Part shown: positions 7,499-22,744 of the stretch, piece after piece | Layout: every line of letters begins with the position of its first letter | How positions within the stretch are numbered: the first letter of the stretch is position 1 | Assembly: GCA_017475035.1 (NCBI GenBank) | Contig: JAFVGK010000014.1 | Location: 1-44,242, forward strand | DNA: 44,242 bases | From: Blautia sp. | GTDB taxonomy: Bacteria; Bacillota; Clostridia; Lachnospirales; Lachnospiraceae | Reading direction: 5' to 3' | The notes under the pieces: model-generated | Database searches by the model: none | What the model was told of the DNA's origin: nothing | Seen by the model: only the letters and a program-made list of their open reading frames with translations | Program-made: the position numbers and the translations under genes

Positions 7499-7685
7499 GA
7501 TTGTTTCCCTCCTTTAAAATATTTCTGATTTATTAGAAAAAGAGGACCGAAGCCCCCTTTCATCCGGATCAATCCTGTGGTACCGTGTACCTTTAATATG
7601 CCTCTTCGTAAATTGGCATCCCTACATAAACAAAGTCAATCAGAGGACCGTCCTCTGGTTGTTGACTTTTCGCAACTTTTTTTCC

Positions 7686-8200: not shown

Positions 8201-8512
8201 TCATCTCAGGTATCTTCCATTCACCCATCCATAAAAACCGTTACGATAAGCCCATCGCCATACGGCATCCCTCCCATTCATCGTGTAATAGGGATGTACA
8301 CGAACCTGTTCACCGTTTCCCCATCCACCAACATTATGATTGATCGCTCCATCTGGTGCATAACGAATTGTCAGATAAGAATCCGGCCCGGTAGTTACTC
8401 CGTGGGAAACAGCAATTGCAAATTTTGTCCAGTCATAAAGTGGCACACCATTAAAAGAATCCTGAGCACCACCTACCACTTTTTCCAAATTTTCGATGTT
8501 AATCCTTTCCAT
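8201..8512 (-). CDS. double-glycine-leader SH3-like small secreted protein (type 2)
   Basis: A 103-residue protein. Residues 1-15 (MERINIENLEKVVGG) have the form of a double-glycine leader, cut after GG by C39-peptidase ABC exporters. The remaining ~88 residues are a small aromatic-rich module with no extra cysteines. It shares the pattern of bacterial SH3 domains: LTIRYAPDG (N-terminal strand), GEQVRVHPYY (middle), and FYGWVNGRYLR (the final GWVN strand). The tandem genes at 14258 and 14721 have the same design but a different sequence. Likely role (inference): an exported peptide or wall-binding protein; no exporter is in the window. GGAGG 8 nt upstream fixes the start, a -10 TATAAT lies at 8539-8544, and a hairpin terminator follows. 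Confidence 0.75.
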   Translation of the reverse strand: MERINIENLEKVVGGAQDSFNGVPLYDWTKFAIAVSHGVTTGPDSYLTIRYAPDGAINHNVGGWGNGEQVRVHPYYTMNGRDAVWRWAYRNGFYGWVNGRYLR

Positions 8513-8544: not shown

Positions 8545-9387
8545 TAAAATTTACGGTATGATAATATTATCCAGCATCACGCCTGTTATCCCTCTATATT
8601 TTTCATGTTCCGTCTTTGGATATTCCAACTGAAATAAGAAAATGATACCATAGTCCCACAGTCAGGGCATTTAAGATTGCATCGACAAAACCCAAGAAAA
8701 AAAGGTGTTCTTTAAGGTCTAAATTGCTCCCATGAGCTTTGATTATTAAATGATCAGTAACTTAAATTGCCTTTTAAATTATAGTAAACGTCAAAAATAT
8801 CTTTACTTTGTTGTTTATATATTACAGGAAAAATTAATCATCATTGTAGATCAAAGTAAGAATTTCCATGTCGTTTACTATAGATATTTAATTATACGTA
8901 GATTATGCTCGATGTCCACAGTTTTTTACTGTCACCCGAGAAATTCCTCATTTGCCAAAGTAAATTCCAGTCTGAGGTAGAATTTACTTTGGCAAATGAG
9001 ACTTCACAAAGTCTTCACACCAAAATGCGTCCTGACTGATCCACCCTCTTCGGGATTTTTCCGGCTGTCCTGAGATCGCCGGCTTTTCGCGTATCCAAAG
9101 CCGGTCATCCCAAGGCAGTATTCTTGCAAGGCAATGGGCAGGAGTATCCTGCCATACGGTCGCGTCCCCGCGAACCGAGTCGGAAAAGCTGCTTTGAAGC
9201 TTTATGGTCTGTAACCAGCCGGATACACAAAAGTTCTTCTTCGCCGCCCAATAACGCCGCCCCATTCCGTAGCTCGTTAAAGGCCTTTTCCTGTCGGTTC
9301 TCAGTTCTGTTTCCACATGGCAATCCCTATCCGCCATGAGCGAAATACCCCGCAGGCTGCGCCTGCACGGCAAGGCTGAAAAAAAAG
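8545..9387. other. gene-poor stretch
   Basis: Apart from the perfect inverted repeat at 8947-9000 I see no supported gene. An open minus-strand frame (8984-9394) of 136 codons has no ribosome site, and its first codons lie inside repeat R1. Its composition is rich in Trp, Arg and Ser, as expected of a chance frame. GATTGCATCGACAAAA at 8675 recurs at 22254. Confidence 0.4.
8947..9000. repeat. perfect 20-bp inverted repeat
   Basis: CTCATTTGCCAAAGTAAATT (8947-8966) and its exact complement (8981-9000), separated by 14 nt. No T run follows on either strand, so it is not a typical terminator. It could be a protein-binding site or the end of a vanished element. Confidence 0.7.
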
Positions 9388-9486: not shown

Positions 9487-10224
9487 TCAGGCATCTGTTC
9501 GTGCTGCAGCTTCTCCCTCTGCTATCGGTGAATGCAATCTGCTCAGATAGATACAATAGACAATCGCCACTACTATCGTCGATCCGATATATATCCAGTC
9601 AAACATCTCATTATCTGCCGCAAACACGGAAAATACATCGATCATAGCATGGGCAATGATACATGGGATAATGCTGCCGCTCTTATAGCAAACCATAGTA
9701 AAGATGAAGCCCCAGCTGACAGCAAATAAAATCTGCATCATTGTCTCAAAGCTTGCGTGTCCTGTAAAAAGATTTATGATATGGCCGATTCCAAACGTTA
9801 CGGCTGAAACAATGATCGCTGAAGCTGTTTTATTCTCCCTCAGCATCGCCCTCAAAAGGAATCCCCTGAAGATCATTTCTTCAACATAACCCACAAGGAT
9901 CATGGAAAAAGCCGCTGTTACCTGAGCCGCGCCCCGATAATATGGATTAATTCCGCCCCAGATGTTACCGGTAGCCAGGATCCACATCGGAATGAAGAAG
10001 AGATACTTCCGGATATCCTTCGGCCATCCGGCAAGTCCGTATTTTTCTTCCAGATGCTCTGACTTTACAAATACTGTGACAGCTGCCGCAAAAACAAGCA
10101 GCGCCAGCAGCATACAGACACTCTCATCCCCGAAATTTCCTCTTATCGTACCTAAAACCACGCAGTAGGCAACGATCCAAAGTACGGCGAAAAGCGTTTC
10201 TTTCTCTTCATACAGTTTACGCAT
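9487..10224 (-). CDS. CPBP-family intramembrane metalloprotease
   Basis: A 245-residue integral membrane protein with about seven or eight hydrophobic helices. It carries the three CPBP/Abi signature motifs: E115-E116-x3-R120 (VEEMIFRG), FGIGH148 and the H192xxxD196 box (IIAHAMIDVFS). These glutamyl-type membrane proteases process prenylated proteins in eukaryotes; in Firmicutes they are linked to bacteriocin self-immunity and leader processing. Its start overlaps the end of the tetR gene by 8 nt, so the two form one operon under the TetR-type repressor. A link to the GG-leader gene 1 kb away is only a possibility. Confidence 0.85.
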   Translation of the reverse strand: MRKLYEEKETLFAVLWIVAYCVVLGTIRGNFGDESVCMLLALLVFAAAVTVFVKSEHLEEKYGLAGWPKDIRKYLFFIPMWILATGNIWGGINPYYRGAAQVTAAFSMILVGYVEEMIFRGFLLRAMLRENKTASAIIVSAVTFGIGHIINLFTGHASFETMMQILFAVSWGFIFTMVCYKSGSIIPCIIAHAMIDVFSVFAADNEMFDWIYIGSTIVVAIVYCIYLSRLHSPIAEGEAAARTDA

Positions 10225-11083: not shown

Positions 11084-13921
11084 TCACCTGGCGTTTCTTT
11101 TCTGATCATCTGTCTTCAGAAGCACCGATGTCAGCGTCTTCATCAGTAATTTAATGTCCACCGGCTTTGCAATATGCGCCTGCATGCCTGCTTCCAGAGC
11201 CGCGAGCTCATCTTCTTTAAAGGCATTCGCTGTCATCGCCAGGATAGGTATATTTGCGAGTTCTTTGTTATCTAGCGCACGGATTTCCCTGGTCGCTTCA
11301 TATCCGTCCATTACCGGCATCTGGATATCCATCAGGACAGCGTCATAGTAGCCCGGCTCAGATGAGGAAACCTTATCCAGCGCGATTTTCCCATTCTCGG
11401 CAGTTTCCACCGTGAAACCGGCCTCTGAGAGGATCACATTGGCAATTTCCATGTTTACCATGTTGTCCTCAACCAGCAGCAGCCTTCTGCCTGTGAAATC
11501 GATTGTCGTGTTTGCCTGTACCTCTTCAGTACTGTCTGTTGTTTCCTGCTGATCCTTCCTTACGTCCTTCTCTTCGGCAATTTTCAGCTTCAGGCGGATG
11601 ACAATGGTCGTACCGGTACCCGGTGCCGTGATTACTTCAATCGTGCCTCCCATCAGGTCGACAATACTCTTGGTGATCGACATCCCCAGTCCGGTTCCTT
11701 CCACACCGCTGACGGTAGAAGTACGCTCCCGTTCAAAGGCAGTAAAAATTTTTTCTGCAAATTCCCTGGACATGCCGATGCCGCTGTCCTGTACCCTGAT
11801 CTCATAGGAACCGTATCCGTTTTCCCCACTGCCGGCTTCACAAAGCGAAGTAGTAATATGTCCCCCTTCCGGTGTGAACTTATACGCATTACTGAGGATA
11901 TTCAGCAGCACGCGATTCAGGTTTTTCCTGTCGCACCATACATATTGGTTCTGAACCTGGCTGGTATGTACCTCGAAATCCAGTTTCTTCTGTCTCATCT
12001 GTTCTGAAAACAGGTCACGGATACCCTCAAATAATTCCCGAAGATCTAAAGGTAAGAATTCCAGCTCAATCGTTCCGCTTTCAATGCGGCTCATTTCAAG
12101 AATATCGTTAATCAGCGCAAGCAGATGCTGGCTGGAGCTTTCAATCTTGTCGAGGTATTCATGGGTCTTTGTGATATCCTTTTCTTTTTGCGCCAGGTTT
12201 GTGTAGCCGATAATTGCGTTCATCGGAGTTCGGATATCGTGAGACATATTAAAAAGAAACCGGCTTTTTGCAAGACTGCTCTCTACCGCATGAATCTTTT
12301 CCCGTTCCGTTGCTTCATGCTTCTGCCTTACGACGTTCTGTATATACAGCATAACGGCAAGGCCAACAAGTATAATCACGATCAGGATGACTCCATCCCA
12401 GACAACCATCTGTTTCACATGCAGGATATCATCCACCGCAGAAATGCGCTTTACAAACCACAAAAGAGCAGAATACACCAGCAAGGCAAACATAGCGATT
12501 CCCGAAGTGGAAATCCCGCTGTACTCCGTGAGAGTGCTCCTGATCACTGTCCTCCAATAAAAGACAAAGCCAAGCAGGCACCAGAATGCCAGCATCAGAA
12601 AAGCTTCGCTTTCCATAGCATCCAGCGCTGCAATTCCCGGAACAAGCTGCACAATGAGAAATATCACCGAAATGAACGCGCCAATCAACCCGGTTACTGT
12701 CGTTTTCCTGTTTCCCTCTGCCTTAGCCAGCTTGTAAGCTGCCGCCGAGCAATACCCGAATCCGATAATTGCCCCCAGGGATGTCAGGTCGACAAACCAG
12801 ACCAGTATGTTCCTTCCAAGCAGAGAAAGGAGTATGGACAAAACCAGGATAAATACAATGCTATAGGTGGTGTTCTGAAACTTTTCTGACAGAATCCTGT
12901 CCTCCGCCATTGTTGCCAGCACACGGGTTGTCGCCCGATAGCCACCGATGATCCCGGTCAGTATGGCCGCAACAGCCGTTATCGTCATAATAACCAGGCC
13001 AGCGGTTCCCATGACGGATTTTGCCACAAAGAATGTCGGTACCGAAGCAAGGCCTCTCAATCCGTCAAGTCCTTCTATATACGCCTGCCAGGTCGGAAAA
13101 CCATCGGGCATGCAGCTGACGCTGACGAAGGTCATAACAACATAAGCAAATGTTGCCGCCAGGATTGAACCAAATACGATGCTTCTGGATCTCTTGATTG
13201 GGAAACGAAAATGAGCTGTATCAAGCGCCGTTACTTCAAATCCGACGAAGGCCCAGGGTGCCATAATAACCAGACTAAGAACAGCGTATCCCTTGTTCAG
13301 TCCTTGCGTACCGAAGGAACTCAGAGCACCGCTGGTGATCGCTCCCGGAAGGCAAAAGGCACCGGTAACCACAATACCACCAAACAGAATAAATGCCAGA
13401 ACTGTATGAAGGTGCTGAAGCATCGGTTTAGCCAGCACGAACAGAATCGCTACCGCTGTCAGCACCAGAACGGATACCAACGTCTCTCCCAGATATATGG
13501 TATTCCCTGCTACGGAATAATGGAAGCCGCTCTGCGCAACATCGGCAAACAGTGTCCGTACAATAAAAAACAATGCCGTACCGTTCAGAAACACAATGGT
13601 CAGGTAGGACAGGCATAGAAACCACGAAGAGAGGAAAGCATGATCCCTGCCAAAGGCCTCCTTCGTATACGAATAAACGCCGCCGGTCATGGCAGAGCGT
13701 CCCATCAGACAAGAGAAGTTGTCTCCGATGATCAGCATGAACGCCATCCCCAGCAGCATGGCGATCAGCGTTCCCCCCGGGCCTGCAACCGGGAGGAAGG
13801 TCGTTCCCGGCATGGCAAACACGCCCCAGCCAACCATGCACCCAAAAGCAAGCGCCCAGACATCCGTATAGTTCAGATATCGATCAAATGGTTTTACCAC
13901 GCCTGCAGTTTGTTCTTTCAT
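11084..13921 (-). CDS. APC-permease/hybrid histidine kinase fusion with receiver domain
   Basis: A 945-residue protein. Residues ~10-470 are an amino acid/polyamine (APC) permease-like domain with about 12 membrane helices (GCMVGWGVFAMPG near the start, TGGVYSYTKEAFG). One or two further helices are at ~475-528, then a short coiled linker. HisKA follows with H561 in FNMSHDIRTPMNAIIGYT, then an HATPase with N678 (NILSNAYKF), DSGIG and GTGLGMSI. A C-terminal receiver has phospho-acceptor D865 (LMDIQMPVMDGYEATREIR) and K919. The permease part would act as the sensor, as in CbrA-type transporter-kinases, possibly for an amino acid. No output domain or partner regulator is adjacent. The start at 13921 follows GGGAGGA; a TTG 18 nt earlier overlaps that site. 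Leader element L1 lies immediately upstream. Confidence 0.9.
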   Translation of the reverse strand: MKEQTAGVVKPFDRYLNYTDVWALAFGCMVGWGVFAMPGTTFLPVAGPGGTLIAMLLGMAFMLIIGDNFSCLMGRSAMTGGVYSYTKEAFGRDHAFLSSWFLCLSYLTIVFLNGTALFFIVRTLFADVAQSGFHYSVAGNTIYLGETLVSVLVLTAVAILFVLAKPMLQHLHTVLAFILFGGIVVTGAFCLPGAITSGALSSFGTQGLNKGYAVLSLVIMAPWAFVGFEVTALDTAHFRFPIKRSRSIVFGSILAATFAYVVMTFVSVSCMPDGFPTWQAYIEGLDGLRGLASVPTFFVAKSVMGTAGLVIMTITAVAAILTGIIGGYRATTRVLATMAEDRILSEKFQNTTYSIVFILVLSILLSLLGRNILVWFVDLTSLGAIIGFGYCSAAAYKLAKAEGNRKTTVTGLIGAFISVIFLIVQLVPGIAALDAMESEAFLMLAFWCLLGFVFYWRTVIRSTLTEYSGISTSGIAMFALLVYSALLWFVKRISAVDDILHVKQMVVWDGVILIVIILVGLAVMLYIQNVVRQKHEATEREKIHAVESSLAKSRFLFNMSHDIRTPMNAIIGYTNLAQKEKDITKTHEYLDKIESSSQHLLALINDILEMSRIESGTIELEFLPLDLRELFEGIRDLFSEQMRQKKLDFEVHTSQVQNQYVWCDRKNLNRVLLNILSNAYKFTPEGGHITTSLCEAGSGENGYGSYEIRVQDSGIGMSREFAEKIFTAFERERTSTVSGVEGTGLGMSITKSIVDLMGGTIEVITAPGTGTTIVIRLKLKIAEEKDVRKDQQETTDSTEEVQANTTIDFTGRRLLLVEDNMVNMEIANVILSEAGFTVETAENGKIALDKVSSSEPGYYDAVLMDIQMPVMDGYEATREIRALDNKELANIPILAMTANAFKEDELAALEAGMQAHIAKPVDIKLLMKTLTSVLLKTDDQKRNAR

Positions 13922-13931
13922 ATCCCACAGT

Positions 13932-13994
13932 CCTCCCAAAGCGAAGATTTGTACGTTGACTCAATGTCTTCGGATGAAGATTTTGTTGTTTCGG
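13932..13994 (-). repeat. leader element L1, copy A (upstream of kinase gene)
   Basis: In minus-strand sense: CCGAAGACATTGAGTCAACG then TACAAATCTTCGCTTTGGGAGGA, ending in the ribosome site. It matches copies before uxaB (16822) and pyrH (39786). The upstream hairpin part is degenerate here. Confidence 0.7.
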
Positions 13995-14183: not shown

Positions 14184-14234
14184 AAAAAAACTCCACATCT
14201 GGTCTCTCAATCCCCGAGAAACCCGATGCGGAGT
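14184..14234 (-). terminator. rho-independent terminator of GG-leader gene A
   Basis: A long hairpin on the minus strand: ACTCCGCATC..GGTTTCTC pairs with GAGAGACC..GATGTGGAGT and is followed by TTTTTTT, 24 nt after the stop of the gene at 14258. Confidence 0.85.
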
Positions 14235-14257
14235 CTGATTCAGATCATTATGATTTT

Positions 14258-14554
14258 TTAATCCAACAGGGTCAGAAAATTGGTGTTGACCCAGCCCCAG
14301 ATTCCATTATAGTTTGCCCAGAAGTAAGTGTAGCCGGAGCCGTCCGCCGTTCTCTTAACATCTACATAGAACCTGTTTCCCGGATAGATCTGCGCGATCT
14401 CATTGGAGTCATTCCAGGATGGCTGGCTGCGGAGCGCAAGATAGGTACCTGCTTTGACATTCGGCTCTGCGAGATGAAGCTCGCCCTGCGGATATCCGTT
14501 GCCGCCTGTAACGTTCTCAAGGTTGTTATTGTCGATATTCTTCATTTCACTCAT
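14258..14554 (-). CDS. double-glycine-leader SH3-like small secreted protein, tandem copy A
   Basis: A 98-residue protein. Leader MSEMKNIDNNNLENVTGG (1-18) has the ExxNxxGG form cut by C39-peptidase ABC exporters. The predicted mature 80 residues form an SH3b-like module: GTYLALRSQPSW (RT-loop strand), EIAQIYPGNRFYVD, then YTYFWANYNGIWGWVNTNFL (final strands with GWVN). It differs from the upstream copy at three residues (L/V, I/T, F/Y). There are no cysteines, so it is not lanthionine-like. Expected role (inference): an exported wall-binding or signalling peptide. The start at 14554 is set by GGAGG; an ATG 15 nt earlier overlaps that site. Its leader contains hairpin 14624-14648, shared with copy B, and terminators follow. 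Confidence 0.8.
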   Translation of the reverse strand: MSEMKNIDNNNLENVTGGNGYPQGELHLAEPNVKAGTYLALRSQPSWNDSNEIAQIYPGNRFYVDVKRTADGSGYTYFWANYNGIWGWVNTNFLTLLD

Positions 14555-14623
14555 TGTTTTTTCCTCCATTTTTTCTTTTTCATCTTAGCGCCTGTATTCA
14601 TCAGGCTTGTATCTTTATTGAAG

Positions 14624-14648
14624 ATGTCATGATGTTTTCATCTGACAT
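14624..14648 (-). promoter_or_regulatory. conserved leader hairpin/operator of GG-leader gene A
   Basis: In minus-strand sense ATGTCAGATG-AAAA-CATCATGACAT is a near-perfect hairpin about 70 nt before the start. The same structure is kept at 15086-15111 although the flanks differ, so it is likely functional (operator or mRNA structure). Confidence 0.55.
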
Positions 14649-14720
14649 AGCTATGAAACGCGGGAGAAAATCTTTGCTCCTGCCGGGGAATTTCTATTTA
14701 GAAACTATGGTATGATTTAT

Positions 14721-15017
14721 TTAATCCAACAGAGTCAGATAGTTGGTGTTGACCCAGCCCCAGGTTCCATTATAATTTGCCCAGAAGTAAGTGTAGCCGG
14801 AACCGTCCGCCGTTCTCTTAACATCTACATAGAACCTGTTTCCCGGATAGATCTGCGCGATCTCATTGGAGTCATTCCAGGATGGCTGGCTGCGGAGCGC
14901 AAGATAGGTACCTGCTTTGACATTCGGCTCTGCGACATGAAGCTCGCCCTGCGGATATCCGTTGCCGCCTGTAACATTCTCAAGGTTGTTGTTGTCGATA
15001 TTCTTCATTTCACTCAT
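14721..15017 (-). CDS. double-glycine-leader SH3-like small secreted protein, tandem copy B
   Basis: A 98-residue protein with the same leader (LENVTGG, cut after residue 18) and SH3-like module as copy A; only three residues differ. Genes and ribosome sites are nearly identical in DNA as well, so the duplication is recent or kept alike by conversion. The start at 15017 follows GGAGG 8 nt upstream. It is upstream of copy A on the same strand. There is no clear terminator between them, and each copy has its own hairpin leader. No transporter, immunity or modification gene is adjacent; the next gene downstream is the permease-kinase. Confidence 0.8.
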   Translation of the reverse strand: MSEMKNIDNNNLENVTGGNGYPQGELHVAEPNVKAGTYLALRSQPSWNDSNEIAQIYPGNRFYVDVKRTADGSGYTYFWANYNGTWGWVNTNYLTLLD

Positions 15018-15085
15018 TGTTTTTTCCTCCATTTTTCTTTTTTATTCTCAGTATCTGTATTTTTCTGATTTGTTCTTTTTATTTA

Positions 15086-15111
15086 ATGTCTTGATGTTTT
15101 TCATCTGACAT
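15086..15111 (-). promoter_or_regulatory. conserved leader hairpin/operator of GG-leader gene B
   Basis: ATGTCAGATG-AAAAA-CATCAAGACAT in minus-strand sense, the counterpart of 14624-14648. A possible promoter (TTGTGG ... TATATA) lies about 20 nt upstream. Confidence 0.55.
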
Positions 15112-15217
15112 AGATATATACGAGAGAGGGATAGGGCATCCACAAAAAAAATAAAAAATCGCAAAATCGCAAAATATCGAAAAACAAGCAAAAAACAAAA
15201 GAACGAGTCGTTGTCAT

Positions 15218-15295: not shown

Positions 15296-16783
15296 TTACA
15301 GACAAGCCTTGTAAGCAGCGAGTGCGCCTTCCTTGCGGATCGTGCCGAGAATGTCAGTGACAGCGGCTTCAAAGCCTTCAATCCTGGTCAGATCCTGTCC
15401 CCACATCTCTTCGTTGGTCATAACGGCATGCACTAACGCTGCGTCATCATCCCCTTTATGAGCATTGTAGAACTCGAGTACATAGCGGTCATCGGATACC
15501 GTATAGGTATTGCCCTTCGGCCGGCGGCAGACGAGTCCCTGCTCGGTCAGCTCCTGAATATCGCTGGAGTAGAAAGCGATATAGGCTGCAAAGCTTGCGG
15601 TCAGGCATTTCGGAAGAGCCTTGTTTGTTTCCACATAATCCAGGAACGTCGGCATGTTGCGGGCACGCCATTTGGATGTAGAATTCAGGGAAATGCTCAT
15701 CAGCTCATGGTTGACGAACGGGTTATTGAAACGGTCCTGAACAGCCTCGGCAAATTCCGTCAGATCTTTTTTGTCCAGCGGAAGGGTCGGGATCACTTCA
15801 TCGTAGAGCATCTTGTTCATGAAGCCGCGGACAGTATCGTCATGCATGCAGTCACGTACAATGTCAAAGCCTGCCAGATATGCGCCAAGGACAAAGCCGG
15901 TATGTGCTCCGTTCAGAATGCGTACCTTTCTCTTCTTATATGGCGTAACATCCGGAACTACAATGACAGGTGTACCTGCTGCCTTGAAGGGCAGACGGTC
16001 CTCGAGGCCTTCAGGTCCTTCGATTACCCAGATGCCAAAGACTTCGCCGACATCCGTCAGAGGATCCGCGTAACCATTTTTCTCATCAAGCGCCTTTACT
16101 TCCTCAGGATCGCGGATACGTCCCGGTACGATACGGTCAACCAGTGTTGAACAGAAGACGTTTTCTTCGTTTACCCAGCGGCGGAAGTCATCGCTGAGCT
16201 TCCAGTCATCAATATACTGGTTTACGCATTTGAGAAGCTCTTTACCGTTGTTGTCGATCAGCTCGCAGCTGAGCATAATGATGCCCTTCTTGCCTGCGGA
16301 AAAACGTTCAAAGAGAACGCGGGTGAGCTTGGCCGGGAAGCTGGTCGGCGGAACCTGGTCAAAGGTGCTCTCATTGTCATGGACAATACCAGCTTCTGTG
16401 GTATTGGAAACAATGATTTCCAGATCATCGCTCTTCGCGAACTCCAGAACCTTGTCCCAGTCACCATAAGGATTCAGGCAGCGGCTTACGCAGGAGATGA
16501 CACGTTTGTCATCAACTTTTACGCCCTTTTCACTGCCGCGCAGATACAGGGTATACAGACCCTCCTGCTTATTGATCAGCTCTGCCAGGCCCGGCGCGAT
16601 CGGCTGTACCAGAACCACTTTTCCGTTATAGCCAACCTTTTCATTTGCAATATCAAAGAAATCGTCAACGAAGGCGCGAAGGAAATTTCCTTCGCCGAAC
16701 TGCATGACCTTCTCAACGCCATCCTTCTGGATAAATCCGTCATAACCGGACTGCTTCAACACTTCATAATTCAGCTGTTCCAT
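15296..16783 (-). CDS. uxaB: tagaturonate reductase (altronate oxidoreductase)
   Basis: A 495-residue NAD-dependent member of the polyol-specific long-chain dehydrogenase family. It reduces D-tagaturonate to D-altronate in galacturonate breakdown. The N-terminal block QFGEGNFLRAFVDDFFDIAN is characteristic of UxaB; IVSNTTEAGI and the KVRILNGAHT region (catalytic Lys, substrate pocket) follow. MEQL at 16783 was taken as the start because of GAAGGAG upstream; the frame runs open a further 64 codons through leader element L1. Last gene of the minus-strand hexuronate set. UxuB (fructuronate reductase) is a related family, but the neighbouring uxaA and uxaC favour UxaB. Confidence 0.9.
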   Translation of the reverse strand: MEQLNYEVLKQSGYDGFIQKDGVEKVMQFGEGNFLRAFVDDFFDIANEKVGYNGKVVLVQPIAPGLAELINKQEGLYTLYLRGSEKGVKVDDKRVISCVSRCLNPYGDWDKVLEFAKSDDLEIIVSNTTEAGIVHDNESTFDQVPPTSFPAKLTRVLFERFSAGKKGIIMLSCELIDNNGKELLKCVNQYIDDWKLSDDFRRWVNEENVFCSTLVDRIVPGRIRDPEEVKALDEKNGYADPLTDVGEVFGIWVIEGPEGLEDRLPFKAAGTPVIVVPDVTPYKKRKVRILNGAHTGFVLGAYLAGFDIVRDCMHDDTVRGFMNKMLYDEVIPTLPLDKKDLTEFAEAVQDRFNNPFVNHELMSISLNSTSKWRARNMPTFLDYVETNKALPKCLTASFAAYIAFYSSDIQELTEQGLVCRRPKGNTYTVSDDRYVLEFYNAHKGDDDAALVHAVMTNEEMWGQDLTRIEGFEAAVTDILGTIRKEGALAAYKACL

Positions 16784-16821
16784 AAAAAAACACTCCTTCA
16801 CGAAACCTTTCTTATCCTTGC

Positions 16822-16917
16822 TCCTCCCATAACGAAGTTTTGTACGTTGACTCAATGTCTTCGGATGATGATTTTGCCGCTTCGGCAGTTGGGCTGCCGA
16901 AGCAGCAAAATCAGTCT
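16822..16917 (-). repeat. leader element L1, copy B (upstream of uxaB)
   Basis: Full-length copy. In minus-strand sense it begins with a hairpin, GATTTTGCTGCTTCGGCAG / CTGCCGAAGCGGCAAAATC with a 5-nt loop. CATCCGAAGACATTGAGTCA and ACGTACAAAACTTCGTTATGG follow, then a GGAGGAG. It sits between kdgK and uxaB and could adjust uxaB expression. Confidence 0.75.
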
Positions 16918-16987
16918 CCTGTCCACGCGCGATGGTTAAAGAGGAAATTATGAAAGACTTATGGTATGCGCACAAATTTACTATATC

Positions 16988-22215: not shown

Positions 22216-22337
22216 TTCAGATCAGTTCCTCCTTATCCTCTTTTATAATCTTATGATTGCATCGACAAAAGCCTGATTCTACGGATCGCTTCGCAGCGGA
22301 GCTGCTCTCGCGATCCTACAGCCACTCGGAATCCGCT

Positions 22338-22387
22338 CATTTTGCACAGAAAGATTTGCAAAAGTCAAGTATAAATAGTGCAAAATG
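22338..22387. repeat. inverted repeat in the uxaC leader
   Basis: CATTTTGCAC (22338-22347) and GTGCAAAATG (22378-22387) are perfect complements, 30 nt apart. TGCACAA-type words recur near 22780, 22805, 22855 and 22942, so this could be another regulator's site or an mRNA stem. Confidence 0.5.
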
Positions 22388-22420
22388 GCTGCTTCCTCGT
22401 GTCTGTGGGCGACCCAATCT

Positions 22421-22452
22421 CATGCAAAAATGAGCGAGCTCATTTTTGCATG
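22421..22452. repeat. palindromic intergenic repeat (P family), copy 1
   Basis: CATGCAAAAATGAGC and GCTCATTTTTGCATG are perfect 15-bp arms with a 2-nt loop, followed by ACCTTTTGTCGCCTGA. It matches the hairpin at 33965-34012 (then ACCTTTTGTTGTCTGA), so it belongs to a dispersed family. Confidence 0.7.
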
Positions 22453-22744
22453 ACCTTTTGTCGCCTGAATCATAATCTTATTTACATTTCATCAAAATCA
22501 ACCCGATGCTGTGAACCGCCTCGCAGCCCTTCCGGCAGATCAGGATGCAGCTGTTTCTGTCACCGCGCCACGGTGCAGGCCTTTTTGTCCGGTTCTTTTT
22601 ATTGTATTTTCTGGTTCTTTTTTACTGCATTTCCTACTTATAATTTGATACTTTTTCCTACGTTATGTCAAGTCTTTTTTCTTTTGTTCTGTAAAGAATT
22701 TCAAATCCGCAGACTTAGTCTTTATCCTGATAATCTATTTTTAT

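What the first reader, a model, noticed from the sequence alone, without database searches (positions are those of the whole stretch)
14258..15017. Tandem double-glycine-leader SH3-like small proteins, with a distant third member at 8201-8512
Three short genes have an N-terminal GG leader (LENVTGG twice, LEKVVGG once) joined to a compact SH3-like module ending in GWVN. Bacteriocin-type leaders normally precede small peptides; a leader on a folded wall-binding-like domain suggests a C39-exporter cargo class for cell-surface function or competition. The first two copies differ at three residues. No exporter lies in the window, so they must rely on one in trans.
Basis: partly seen in the sequence, partly recalled or inferred. 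Interest (0 to 1): 0.8.

Follow-up and report, generated by a model that had tools for sequence, protein, structure and literature searches.

The report
Small exported SH3 proteins and regulon
Three small genes in a Blautia-like bacterium encode single SH3 domains carrying a bacteriocin-type export tag, and they look like scattered members of a co-regulated set of cell-surface proteins that leave through a peptidase-containing ABC exporter encoded elsewhere in the genome, not like ordinary bacteriocins.

Summary
Three 103-codon ORFs exist (14258-14569, 14721-15032, 8201-8512, all minus). W1 and W2 probably start five codons later and differ at 3 of 98 residues. The mature parts are SH3-like by profile: a 13-member family profile hits both SH3b copies of PDB 4krt (E 6e-10). 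In 33 distinct members the leader has I, L or M at -12 in 33 of 33 and V or I at -4 in 32, as C39 peptidases like (PMC6363468, PMC6959990, passages). The genome has three C39 exporters; one NHLP-type set lies downstream of a family member. Within the genus, 10 of 10 listed carriers match this exporter against 12 of 54 others. New here: a promoter-like motif, GTGGAT-N15-CGTATA, 10 times in this genome (reversed control 0), before five GG-leader genes, W2 among them, and three Sec-signal proteins with SH3-type domains. In some relatives an ECF sigma gene is linked, but none close in this genome. I read this as a dispersed, co-regulated envelope set exported by PCAT and Sec. Cleavage, wall binding and the sigma factor are inferred.

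The parts
14721..15032 (-). W2, GG-leader SH3b protein (probable CDS 14721-15017, 98 aa)
   Evidence: RBS GGAGG before the second ATG
14964..15017 (-). W2 leader MSEMKNIDNNNLENVTGG (I-12, L-7, V-4, GG)
   Evidence: C39 contact positions from PMC6363468 and PMC6959990 (passages)
14736..14906 (-). W2 SH3_3-like domain (residues 38-94 of 98)
   Evidence: E 0.005, sub-threshold; family profile to PDB 4krt E 6e-10
14258..14569 (-). W1, second tandem copy (probable CDS 14258-14554, 98 aa)
14501..14554 (-). W1 leader, same 18 aa as W2
14273..14443 (-). W1 SH3_3-like domain
   Evidence: E 0.021, sub-threshold
8201..8512 (-). W3, distant member (103 aa; leader MERINIENLEKVVGG, I-12 L-7 V-4)
   Evidence: matches family profile A1 (98.9 bits; W3 is one of the 13 rows of A1)
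15117..15143 (-). promoter-like motif GTGGAT-N15-CGTATA, 99 nt before the W2 start
8893..8919 (-). one-mismatch copy of the motif about 380 nt before W3 (tentative)
   Evidence: the window holds 4 matches at up to 2 mismatches, 1.96 expected by chance
15086..15111 (-). dyad ATGTCAGATG-AAAAA-CATCAAGACAT in the W2 5' region
   Evidence: folds at -6.5 kcal/mol
14624..14648 (-). same dyad before W1, where the GTGGAT/CGTATA motif is absent
14188..14236 (-). intrinsic terminator after W1 (long hairpin then T run)
   Evidence: centroid -31.5 kcal/mol, z -5.3; not found by the simple scan

Best explanation
W1, W2 and W3 belong to a dispersed family of single-SH3b proteins that carry a short double-glycine leader. 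They are probably recognised by the C39 peptidase domain of an NHLP-type PCAT (TIGR03796), cut after GG and exported in trans. Outside, the 9-10 kDa SH3b modules most likely bind the producer's own cell wall and form part of its envelope coat. A dedicated promoter (GTGGAT-N15-CGTATA) switches on part of this set together with Sec-exported proteins with SH3-type domains; in several relatives a linked ECF sigma factor is the candidate reader of that promoter. Shown by computation: genes, leader pattern, SH3 relationship by profile, exporter presence, co-occurrence, shared motif. Inferred: cleavage, export, wall binding, and which sigma reads the motif.
For: Leader: 33 of 33 distinct members have I/L/M at -12, a position outside the selecting text pattern, though inside the profile, which was built from 12 of the 33; -4 is V or I in 32 and -7 is L, M or I in 32. 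SH3: A1 profile to both SH3b copies of 4krt, E 6e-10; SH3_3 matches 9 of 13 members at E<=1, best 9e-9. Exporter: TIGR03796 at 899 and 900 bits (cut-off 853) in the own genome, one set downstream of a family member; in G416 a cargo fragment 52% identical to that member precedes the exporter at the contig edge. Co-occurrence in the genus: 10 of 10 carriers match TIGR03796 (E<=1e-140; G448 and G454 under the cut-off) against 12 of 54, Fisher 4e-6; over the cut-off only, 8 of 10 against 11 of 54, 5e-4. Motif: 10 exact sites in the own genome, reversed control 0; 29 sites in 10 carriers, 17 in 54 non-carriers; control 8 in 64 genomes, none in a carrier; exact in 8 of 24 cargo upstreams (21 of them were in the set where it was noticed) and 2 of 189 other genes, both the Sec-signal C184 pair. 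The motif led to a GG-leader SH3-like gene in G416 C39, not among the hits listed (30 bits to A1). A C6-type Sec protein, about 40-45% identical, has it in three genomes.
Against: No structure prediction. Window proteins score below the Pfam SH3_3 cut-off, and W3 alone hits nothing. Bacteriocin_IIc, a leader-bearing bacteriocin model, matches 8 of 13 members at E<=1, best 6e-4. G010 carries a member but no TIGR03796 over cut-off. The motif is absent from 3 of 10 carriers (G413, G443, G452); 12 of 24 cargo upstreams, those of G081 and G010 among them, lack it even at two mismatches. W1 lacks it, W3 has only a one-mismatch copy. Seven of 29 carrier sites have no fitting gene. The nearest ECF homologue in the own genome is 27% identical, and G454 has motif and cargo without an orthologue. 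A strong terminator separates the C171 cargo from the exporter genes, so co-transcription is doubtful. The co-occurrence test ignores relatedness. The genome is a 93.6% complete, 5% contaminated assembly.
Confidence: 0.62

Rival explanations
1. They are bacteriocins: the SH3 domain docks on the wall of competitors and the small protein inhibits growth or wall synthesis.
For: GG leaders and PCATs are best known from bacteriocins; the NCBIfam bacteriocin_sig model matches the W1/W2 leader weakly (11.9 bits, cut-off 15.7); Pfam Bacteriocin_IIc matches 8 of 13 members at E<=1, best 6e-4; copies are divergent and multiple.
Against: No immunity gene recognised by eye beside W1, W2 or W3 or the C53, C90 and C171 copies (gene lists); the same motif precedes Sec-signal SH3-type proteins; purifying selection, not diversification, between W2 and L005; no toxin domain in the family scans of W1-W3.
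Confidence: 0.18
2. They are released or surface signals or host-directed effectors, as proposed for MAM of Faecalibacterium.
For: MAM is a GG-leader protein with a co-occurring PCAT, abundant in the envelope of a human gut Faecalibacterium, with anti-inflammatory activity (PMC12184118, abstract and passages).
Against: No sequence link to MAM was tested; SH3b is typically a wall-binding module (background knowledge); the motif also precedes Sec-signal SH3-type proteins.
Confidence: 0.12
3. The GG motif is incidental and the proteins stay in the cytoplasm or are relics.
For: No exporter in the window; the window's members stand apart from export genes.
Against: The full leader pattern is conserved in 33 members from five genera; purifying selection; exporter co-occurrence.
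Confidence: 0.04

Closest known systems
MAM of Faecalibacterium (PMC12184118, abstract, outline and passages; PMC8836110, passages)
   Same: Small protein of a gut Faecalibacterium with a GG leader carrying I/V-12, M-7, V-4, linked to a PCAT and found in the envelope; in some strains the PCAT gene lies elsewhere.
   Different: The paper speaks of an absence of structural homologues for MAM, proposes a hexameric S-layer-like lattice, and its main text has no 'SH3'; no shared promoter set was described in the passages I saw.
EbfG1-4 / PteB of Synechococcus elongatus (PMC4997328, passages)
   Same: Small GG-motif proteins exported with a C39 peptidase transporter and serving biofilm formation.
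   Different: Mature EbfG proteins show no domain of known function; genes are clustered; cyanobacterial.
NHLP / Nif11 leader peptides with the TIGR03794/6/7 exporter (PMC2887384, passages)
   Same: The exporter belongs to the same family; precursors may lie far from export genes.
   Different: NHLP/N11P leaders end on average at residue 83 and 70 and cores are short and variable, many carrying modifiable residues; here leaders are mostly 15-24 aa (38 in the C171 copy) and the cargo is a conserved SH3b domain; the HlyD-like gene here matches only part of TIGR03794.
SH3b cell-wall-binding domains, e.g. autolytic lysozyme PDB 4krt
   Same: Sequence profile match over profile positions 29-94 of 95.
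   Different: There SH3b is attached to a lysozyme; here it stands alone and carries a GG leader.
PCAT1 / CtA of Clostridium thermocellum (PMC6959990, passages)
   Same: 90-residue GG-leader substrate (24-residue leader, 66-residue cargo) with L-12 and L-7.
   Different: CtA cargo is described as flexible inside the transporter and its position -4 is M.

Membership tests
C39/PCAT substrates (double-glycine leaders) | GG at -2/-1 with hydrophobic -12, -7, -4 | tested here: met
   W1-W3, and 33 of 33 distinct members at -12; GG, -4 and -7 were partly imposed by the selecting pattern, and the profile itself spans the leader
C39/PCAT substrates (double-glycine leaders) | A C39 exporter in the same genome | tested here: met
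   in trans
C39/PCAT substrates (double-glycine leaders) | Cleavage after GG and export | not testable with these tools
   needs mass spectrometry or in vitro cleavage
Bacterial SH3 (SH3_3 / SH3b) | Significant sequence-profile similarity | tested here: met
   Family profile to 4krt E 6e-10; SH3_3 matches in 9 of 13 members, best 9e-9; W1/W2 alone sub-threshold, W3 none
Bacterial SH3 (SH3_3 / SH3b) | SH3 fold | not testable with these tools
   structure prediction switched off
Class II bacteriocins | Curated leader or bacteriocin model over cut-off | tested here: not met
   W1/W2: bacteriocin_sig 11.9 v 15.7 bits, Bacteriocin_IIc 11.7-11.8 v 27.1; W3 no match. Other members reach E 6e-4 to Bacteriocin_IIc (their bits were not shown)
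Class II bacteriocins | Adjacent immunity gene | tested here: inconclusive
   none recognised by eye next to W1, W2, W3 or the C53, C90, C171 copies; no immunity models were searched
Class II bacteriocins | Growth inhibition | not testable with these tools
   bench test
NHLP/N11P precursors | Nitrile-hydratase- or Nif11-like long leader | tested here: not met
   15-18 aa leaders in W1-W3; no such NCBIfam match at E up to 10
ECF-sigma regulon | Dedicated sigma reads the motif | tested here: inconclusive
   ECF gene linked to system genes in five genomes but no orthologue in the own genome

The most novel reading that the evidence does not exclude
A dedicated sigma factor and the NHLP exporter form an envelope-coating system: scattered genes each carry the same promoter, and their SH3b products, some sent through the PCAT and some through Sec, build an adjustable wall coat in Blautia-like bacteria. 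This would be a PCAT used as a general secretion route for folded wall-binding proteins rather than for one peptide.
Probability: 0.4. Interest if true: 0.8.

Novelty: new variant of a known kind. Interest (0 to 1): 0.62.

Why it matters
NHLP-type exporters recur in this bacterial family (over the curated cut-off in 35 of 397 genomes) and genus (19 of 64), and several of the sets read here have no cargo beside them that my simple gene lists recognised. A cargo class made of wall-binding SH3b domains, found again through a shared promoter, would give such exporters a testable role in envelope biology and a way to find their cargo by promoter. It also warns against calling every GG-leader gene a bacteriocin.

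Tried and rejected
Bacteriocin filing: curated leader models below cut-off for W1-W3, no immunity gene recognised. Mobile origin: no relatives of W2 in plasmids or phages, none of W2 or W3 in viral contigs. Co-transcription of the C171 cargo with its exporter: a 16-pair terminator lies between, so I do not claim an operon. The W1/W2 dyad as a family-wide element: seen only in that pair among the 21 upstreams scanned. Assigning the ECF factor to the own genome: best hit 27%. Gathering more relatives for a model: genome contigs gave one, alignment search of viral contigs not possible. Not followed: SpoIIE phosphatase genes beside exporters in G414, G415 and G411, with HATPase_c_2 genes in G414 and G411.

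Counting rules: stand-alone carriers in the genus (10 of 64) were taken from a listing that stops near E 3.5e-12, so weaker carriers may be among the 54. Family-wide: 64 of 397 genomes match the profile (at most 12 candidates scored per genome), but most matches are in longer, often repeated SH3 frames; 5 genomes (six with weak G154) have stand-alone members, of which 4 (5) have TIGR03796 over cut-off against 35 of 397 in all. The 29 motif sites in carriers were all looked at: 9 before GG-leader SH3 genes, 2 before other GG-leader genes, 6 before Sec-signal proteins (signals read by eye; five with an SH3-type match to A1), 2 before a small unknown family, 3 cut by a contig end, 7 with nothing fitting. 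Of the 17 in non-carriers 16 were looked at: 11 lie inside an open frame of 120 codons or more, though two carrier sites before GG-leader genes do so too (G454 C10, G416 C39); one (G417) stands before a Sec-like thioredoxin-type protein and one (G442) before the small unknown family. The upstream test covered 24 cargo genes, not all 33; its 189 control genes come partly from loci fetched for their motif, and 4 more of them match within two mismatches.

Full report
Observation. Three ORFs of 103 codons are present at the stated places on the minus strand. For W1 and W2 the ribosome-binding site GGAGG overlaps the first ATG and serves the next one, giving 98-aa proteins with an 18-aa leader and an 80-aa mature part, no cysteine, pI about 5.1; W3 has a 15-aa leader and an 88-aa mature part, pI about 9.1. 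W1 and W2 differ in 9 codons, 6 of them silent. Against the 76% identical L005 copy from a Blautia sp. MAG of sheep duodenum, dN/dS is about 0.06, with dS near saturation. The genes are under purifying selection. That MAG's contig has the same length (59,823) as contig C27 of G416, a same-genus genome, which is my ground for 'Blautia-like'; the genome's own name was not given.

Surroundings. W1/W2 lie between a 951-aa amino-acid-permease/histidine-kinase/receiver fusion (11084-13939) and a mannitol-dehydrogenase-type gene (15296-16975); a Type II CAAX protease-like gene lies at 9487-10224, between W3 and that fusion. A strong terminator follows W1. No immunity-like or modification gene was recognised by eye beside them.

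Fold. Pfam SH3_3 hits W1 and W2 weakly (E 0.021 and 0.006, below cut-off) and W3 not at all. A family alignment A1 of 13 members, spanning several genera and down to 26% identity to W2, matches the SH3b domains of the autolytic lysozyme 4krt at E 6e-10 over profile positions 29-94, twice in that chain, and ABL-type SH3 at E 0.002. Nine of the 13 members hit SH3_3 at E<=1, best 9e-9; eight hit Bacteriocin_IIc, best 6e-4.

Leader. In 33 distinct full-length members found among 3360 short ORFs of the fetched loci, GG is universal (imposed by the selecting pattern), -4 is V 28, I 4, A 1 and -7 is L 29, M 2, A 1, I 1 (both partly imposed); -12, outside that pattern, is I 18, L 9, M 6. The search profile itself spans the leader and was built from 12 of the 33. 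LahT holds V-4, L-7, L-12 in a groove (PMC6363468, passages), and PCAT1 needs L-7 and L-12 (PMC6959990, passages).

Exporter. The own genome (5.08 Mb, 200 contigs, 93.6% complete, 5% contaminated) has four C39 matches, three of them in full-length exporter frames. Two score 899 and 900 bits to TIGR03796 (cut-off 853) and are followed by TIGR03797-like subunits (704 and 680 bits, cut-off 709); both are preceded by a short gene like the start of TIGR03794, far below its cut-off. On C171 a 134-aa member of the family lies upstream on the same strand, in the order cargo, HlyD-like, ABC1, ABC2, with a terminator between cargo and HlyD. In G416 an exporter is likewise preceded by a cargo fragment at the contig edge, 52% identical over 67 residues to the C171 member.

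Co-occurrence. In the genus, 10 of 64 genomes carry stand-alone members in the listing, and all 10 match TIGR03796 at E<=1e-140 (G448 by a fragment, G454 under the cut-off), against 12 of 54 others (Fisher 4e-6, and 5e-4 if only matches over the cut-off count). In 397 family genomes, 4 of 5 carriers have it over the cut-off against 31 of 392 others; G010 does not. Relatedness was not modelled.

Shared promoter-like motif. Reading 21 upstream regions side by side showed GTGGAT-N15-CGTATA. It is exact in 8 of 24 cargo upstreams and within two mismatches in 12, against 2 exact and 6 within two mismatches of 189 other genes in the same loci; both exact ones are the Sec-signal C184 pair. This test is partly circular, since the motif was noticed there; the genome counts are not. 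The own genome has 10 exact sites, the reversed pattern none. They precede W2, the C171 cargo, the C90 cargo, two GG-leader small proteins without SH3 (C24, C53), two copies of a 183-aa Sec-signal protein with two SH3-type repeats (C184; 46-50 bits to A1; no Pfam hit) and a 486-aa Sec-signal protein with a Pfam SH3_3 domain over cut-off (C6); one site has no ORF and one lies inside a large gene. Signal peptides were recognised by eye. Across the genus there are 29 sites in the 10 carriers (0 in three of them), 17 in the 54 others, and 8 reversed-control sites in all 64, none in a carrier. The motif led to a further GG-leader SH3-like protein in G416 that was not among the listed profile hits (30 bits to A1), and a C6-type protein has it in G000, G414 and G454 (about 40-45% identical). 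The motif also scores as a poor sigma-70 site (9 of 12), so its reader is open.

Candidate regulator. An ECF sigma gene (Pfam Sigma70_r2 and r4_2 in G416 and G374) lies close after the exporter genes in G416 (about 0.5 kb) and G374 (about 0.1 kb), and beside a HlyD-like gene (about 30-37% identical to those of the own genome) in G414, G444 and G448; in G414 a secreted-looking protein, the motif and a cargo follow. Orthologues at 64% identity or more, the query's own included, occur in 6 of 64 genus genomes; all 6 match TIGR03796 (Fisher 0.001) and 4 are carriers (0.004). The own genome lacks one (27%). I therefore offer this factor only as a candidate.

What it does. A stand-alone SH3b domain, delivered outside and apparently controlled together with Sec-exported SH3-type proteins, is best explained as an envelope component bound to the producer's own wall. 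Precedents for non-bacteriocin GG proteins are MAM (envelope lattice, PMC12184118, abstract and passages) and EbfG (biofilm, PMC4997328, passages). Bacteriocin action remains possible.

Novelty. Seven literature searches listed no paper whose title or abstract opening concerns GG-leader SH3 proteins or such a promoter set; only the top rows were shown (9, 8, 20 of 27, 20 of 33, 1, 20 of 54, 20 of 86) and the library is open-access only. I file it as a new variant of PCAT substrates: known leader and exporter, new kind of cargo and a shared promoter.

Noticed in passing
window 11084-13939 (-): One 951-aa protein joins an amino acid permease to a histidine kinase and a receiver domain, a transporter-type sensor kinase.
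   Followed up: partly
G000 C132:41354-41380 (L180): An exact copy of the promoter motif is followed within about 250 nt by what looks like a terminator hairpin, with no ORF of 50 codons or more with a ribosome-binding site found: an orphan RNA or a lost cargo.
   Followed up: partly
G000 C24 (L178:5967-6200) and C53 (L179, motif at 7597): Two motif-preceded GG-leader proteins of 77 and 79 aa without a recognisable SH3 domain, similar to each other by eye: a second cargo type.
   Followed up: partly
L190, L213, L202: Small proteins of 50-79 aa with a shared stretch like DFSKYTDLK..LA..LF follow the promoter motif in G416, G448 and G442; in G416 beside exporter and sigma gene.
   Followed up: no
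L156, L154, L166: SpoIIE-type phosphatase genes, with HATPase_c_2 anti-sigma-like genes in G414 and G411, lie beside NHLP exporters in G414, G415 and G411, suggesting partner-switching control.
   Followed up: no
G000 C171 (L045:2850-7555): A third, different NHLP-like exporter (807 bits, under the cut-off) with a HlyD-like gene and a 626-aa gene that by eye resembles a B12-binding radical SAM enzyme, a possible separate RiPP system.
   Followed up: no
G414 C57 (L059:1501-1794): A close relative of W1/W2 with six cysteines in the mature part, where W1/W2 have none.
   Followed up: no
G000 C118:546-1502: A 353-aa protein with a Sec-like signal (by eye) and four SH3b repeats of the W1/W2 type: the same module by another export route.
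   Followed up: partly
window 22274-22472 (-): Clostridiales-1 RNA (Rfam RF01699, 100.6 bits).
   Followed up: no
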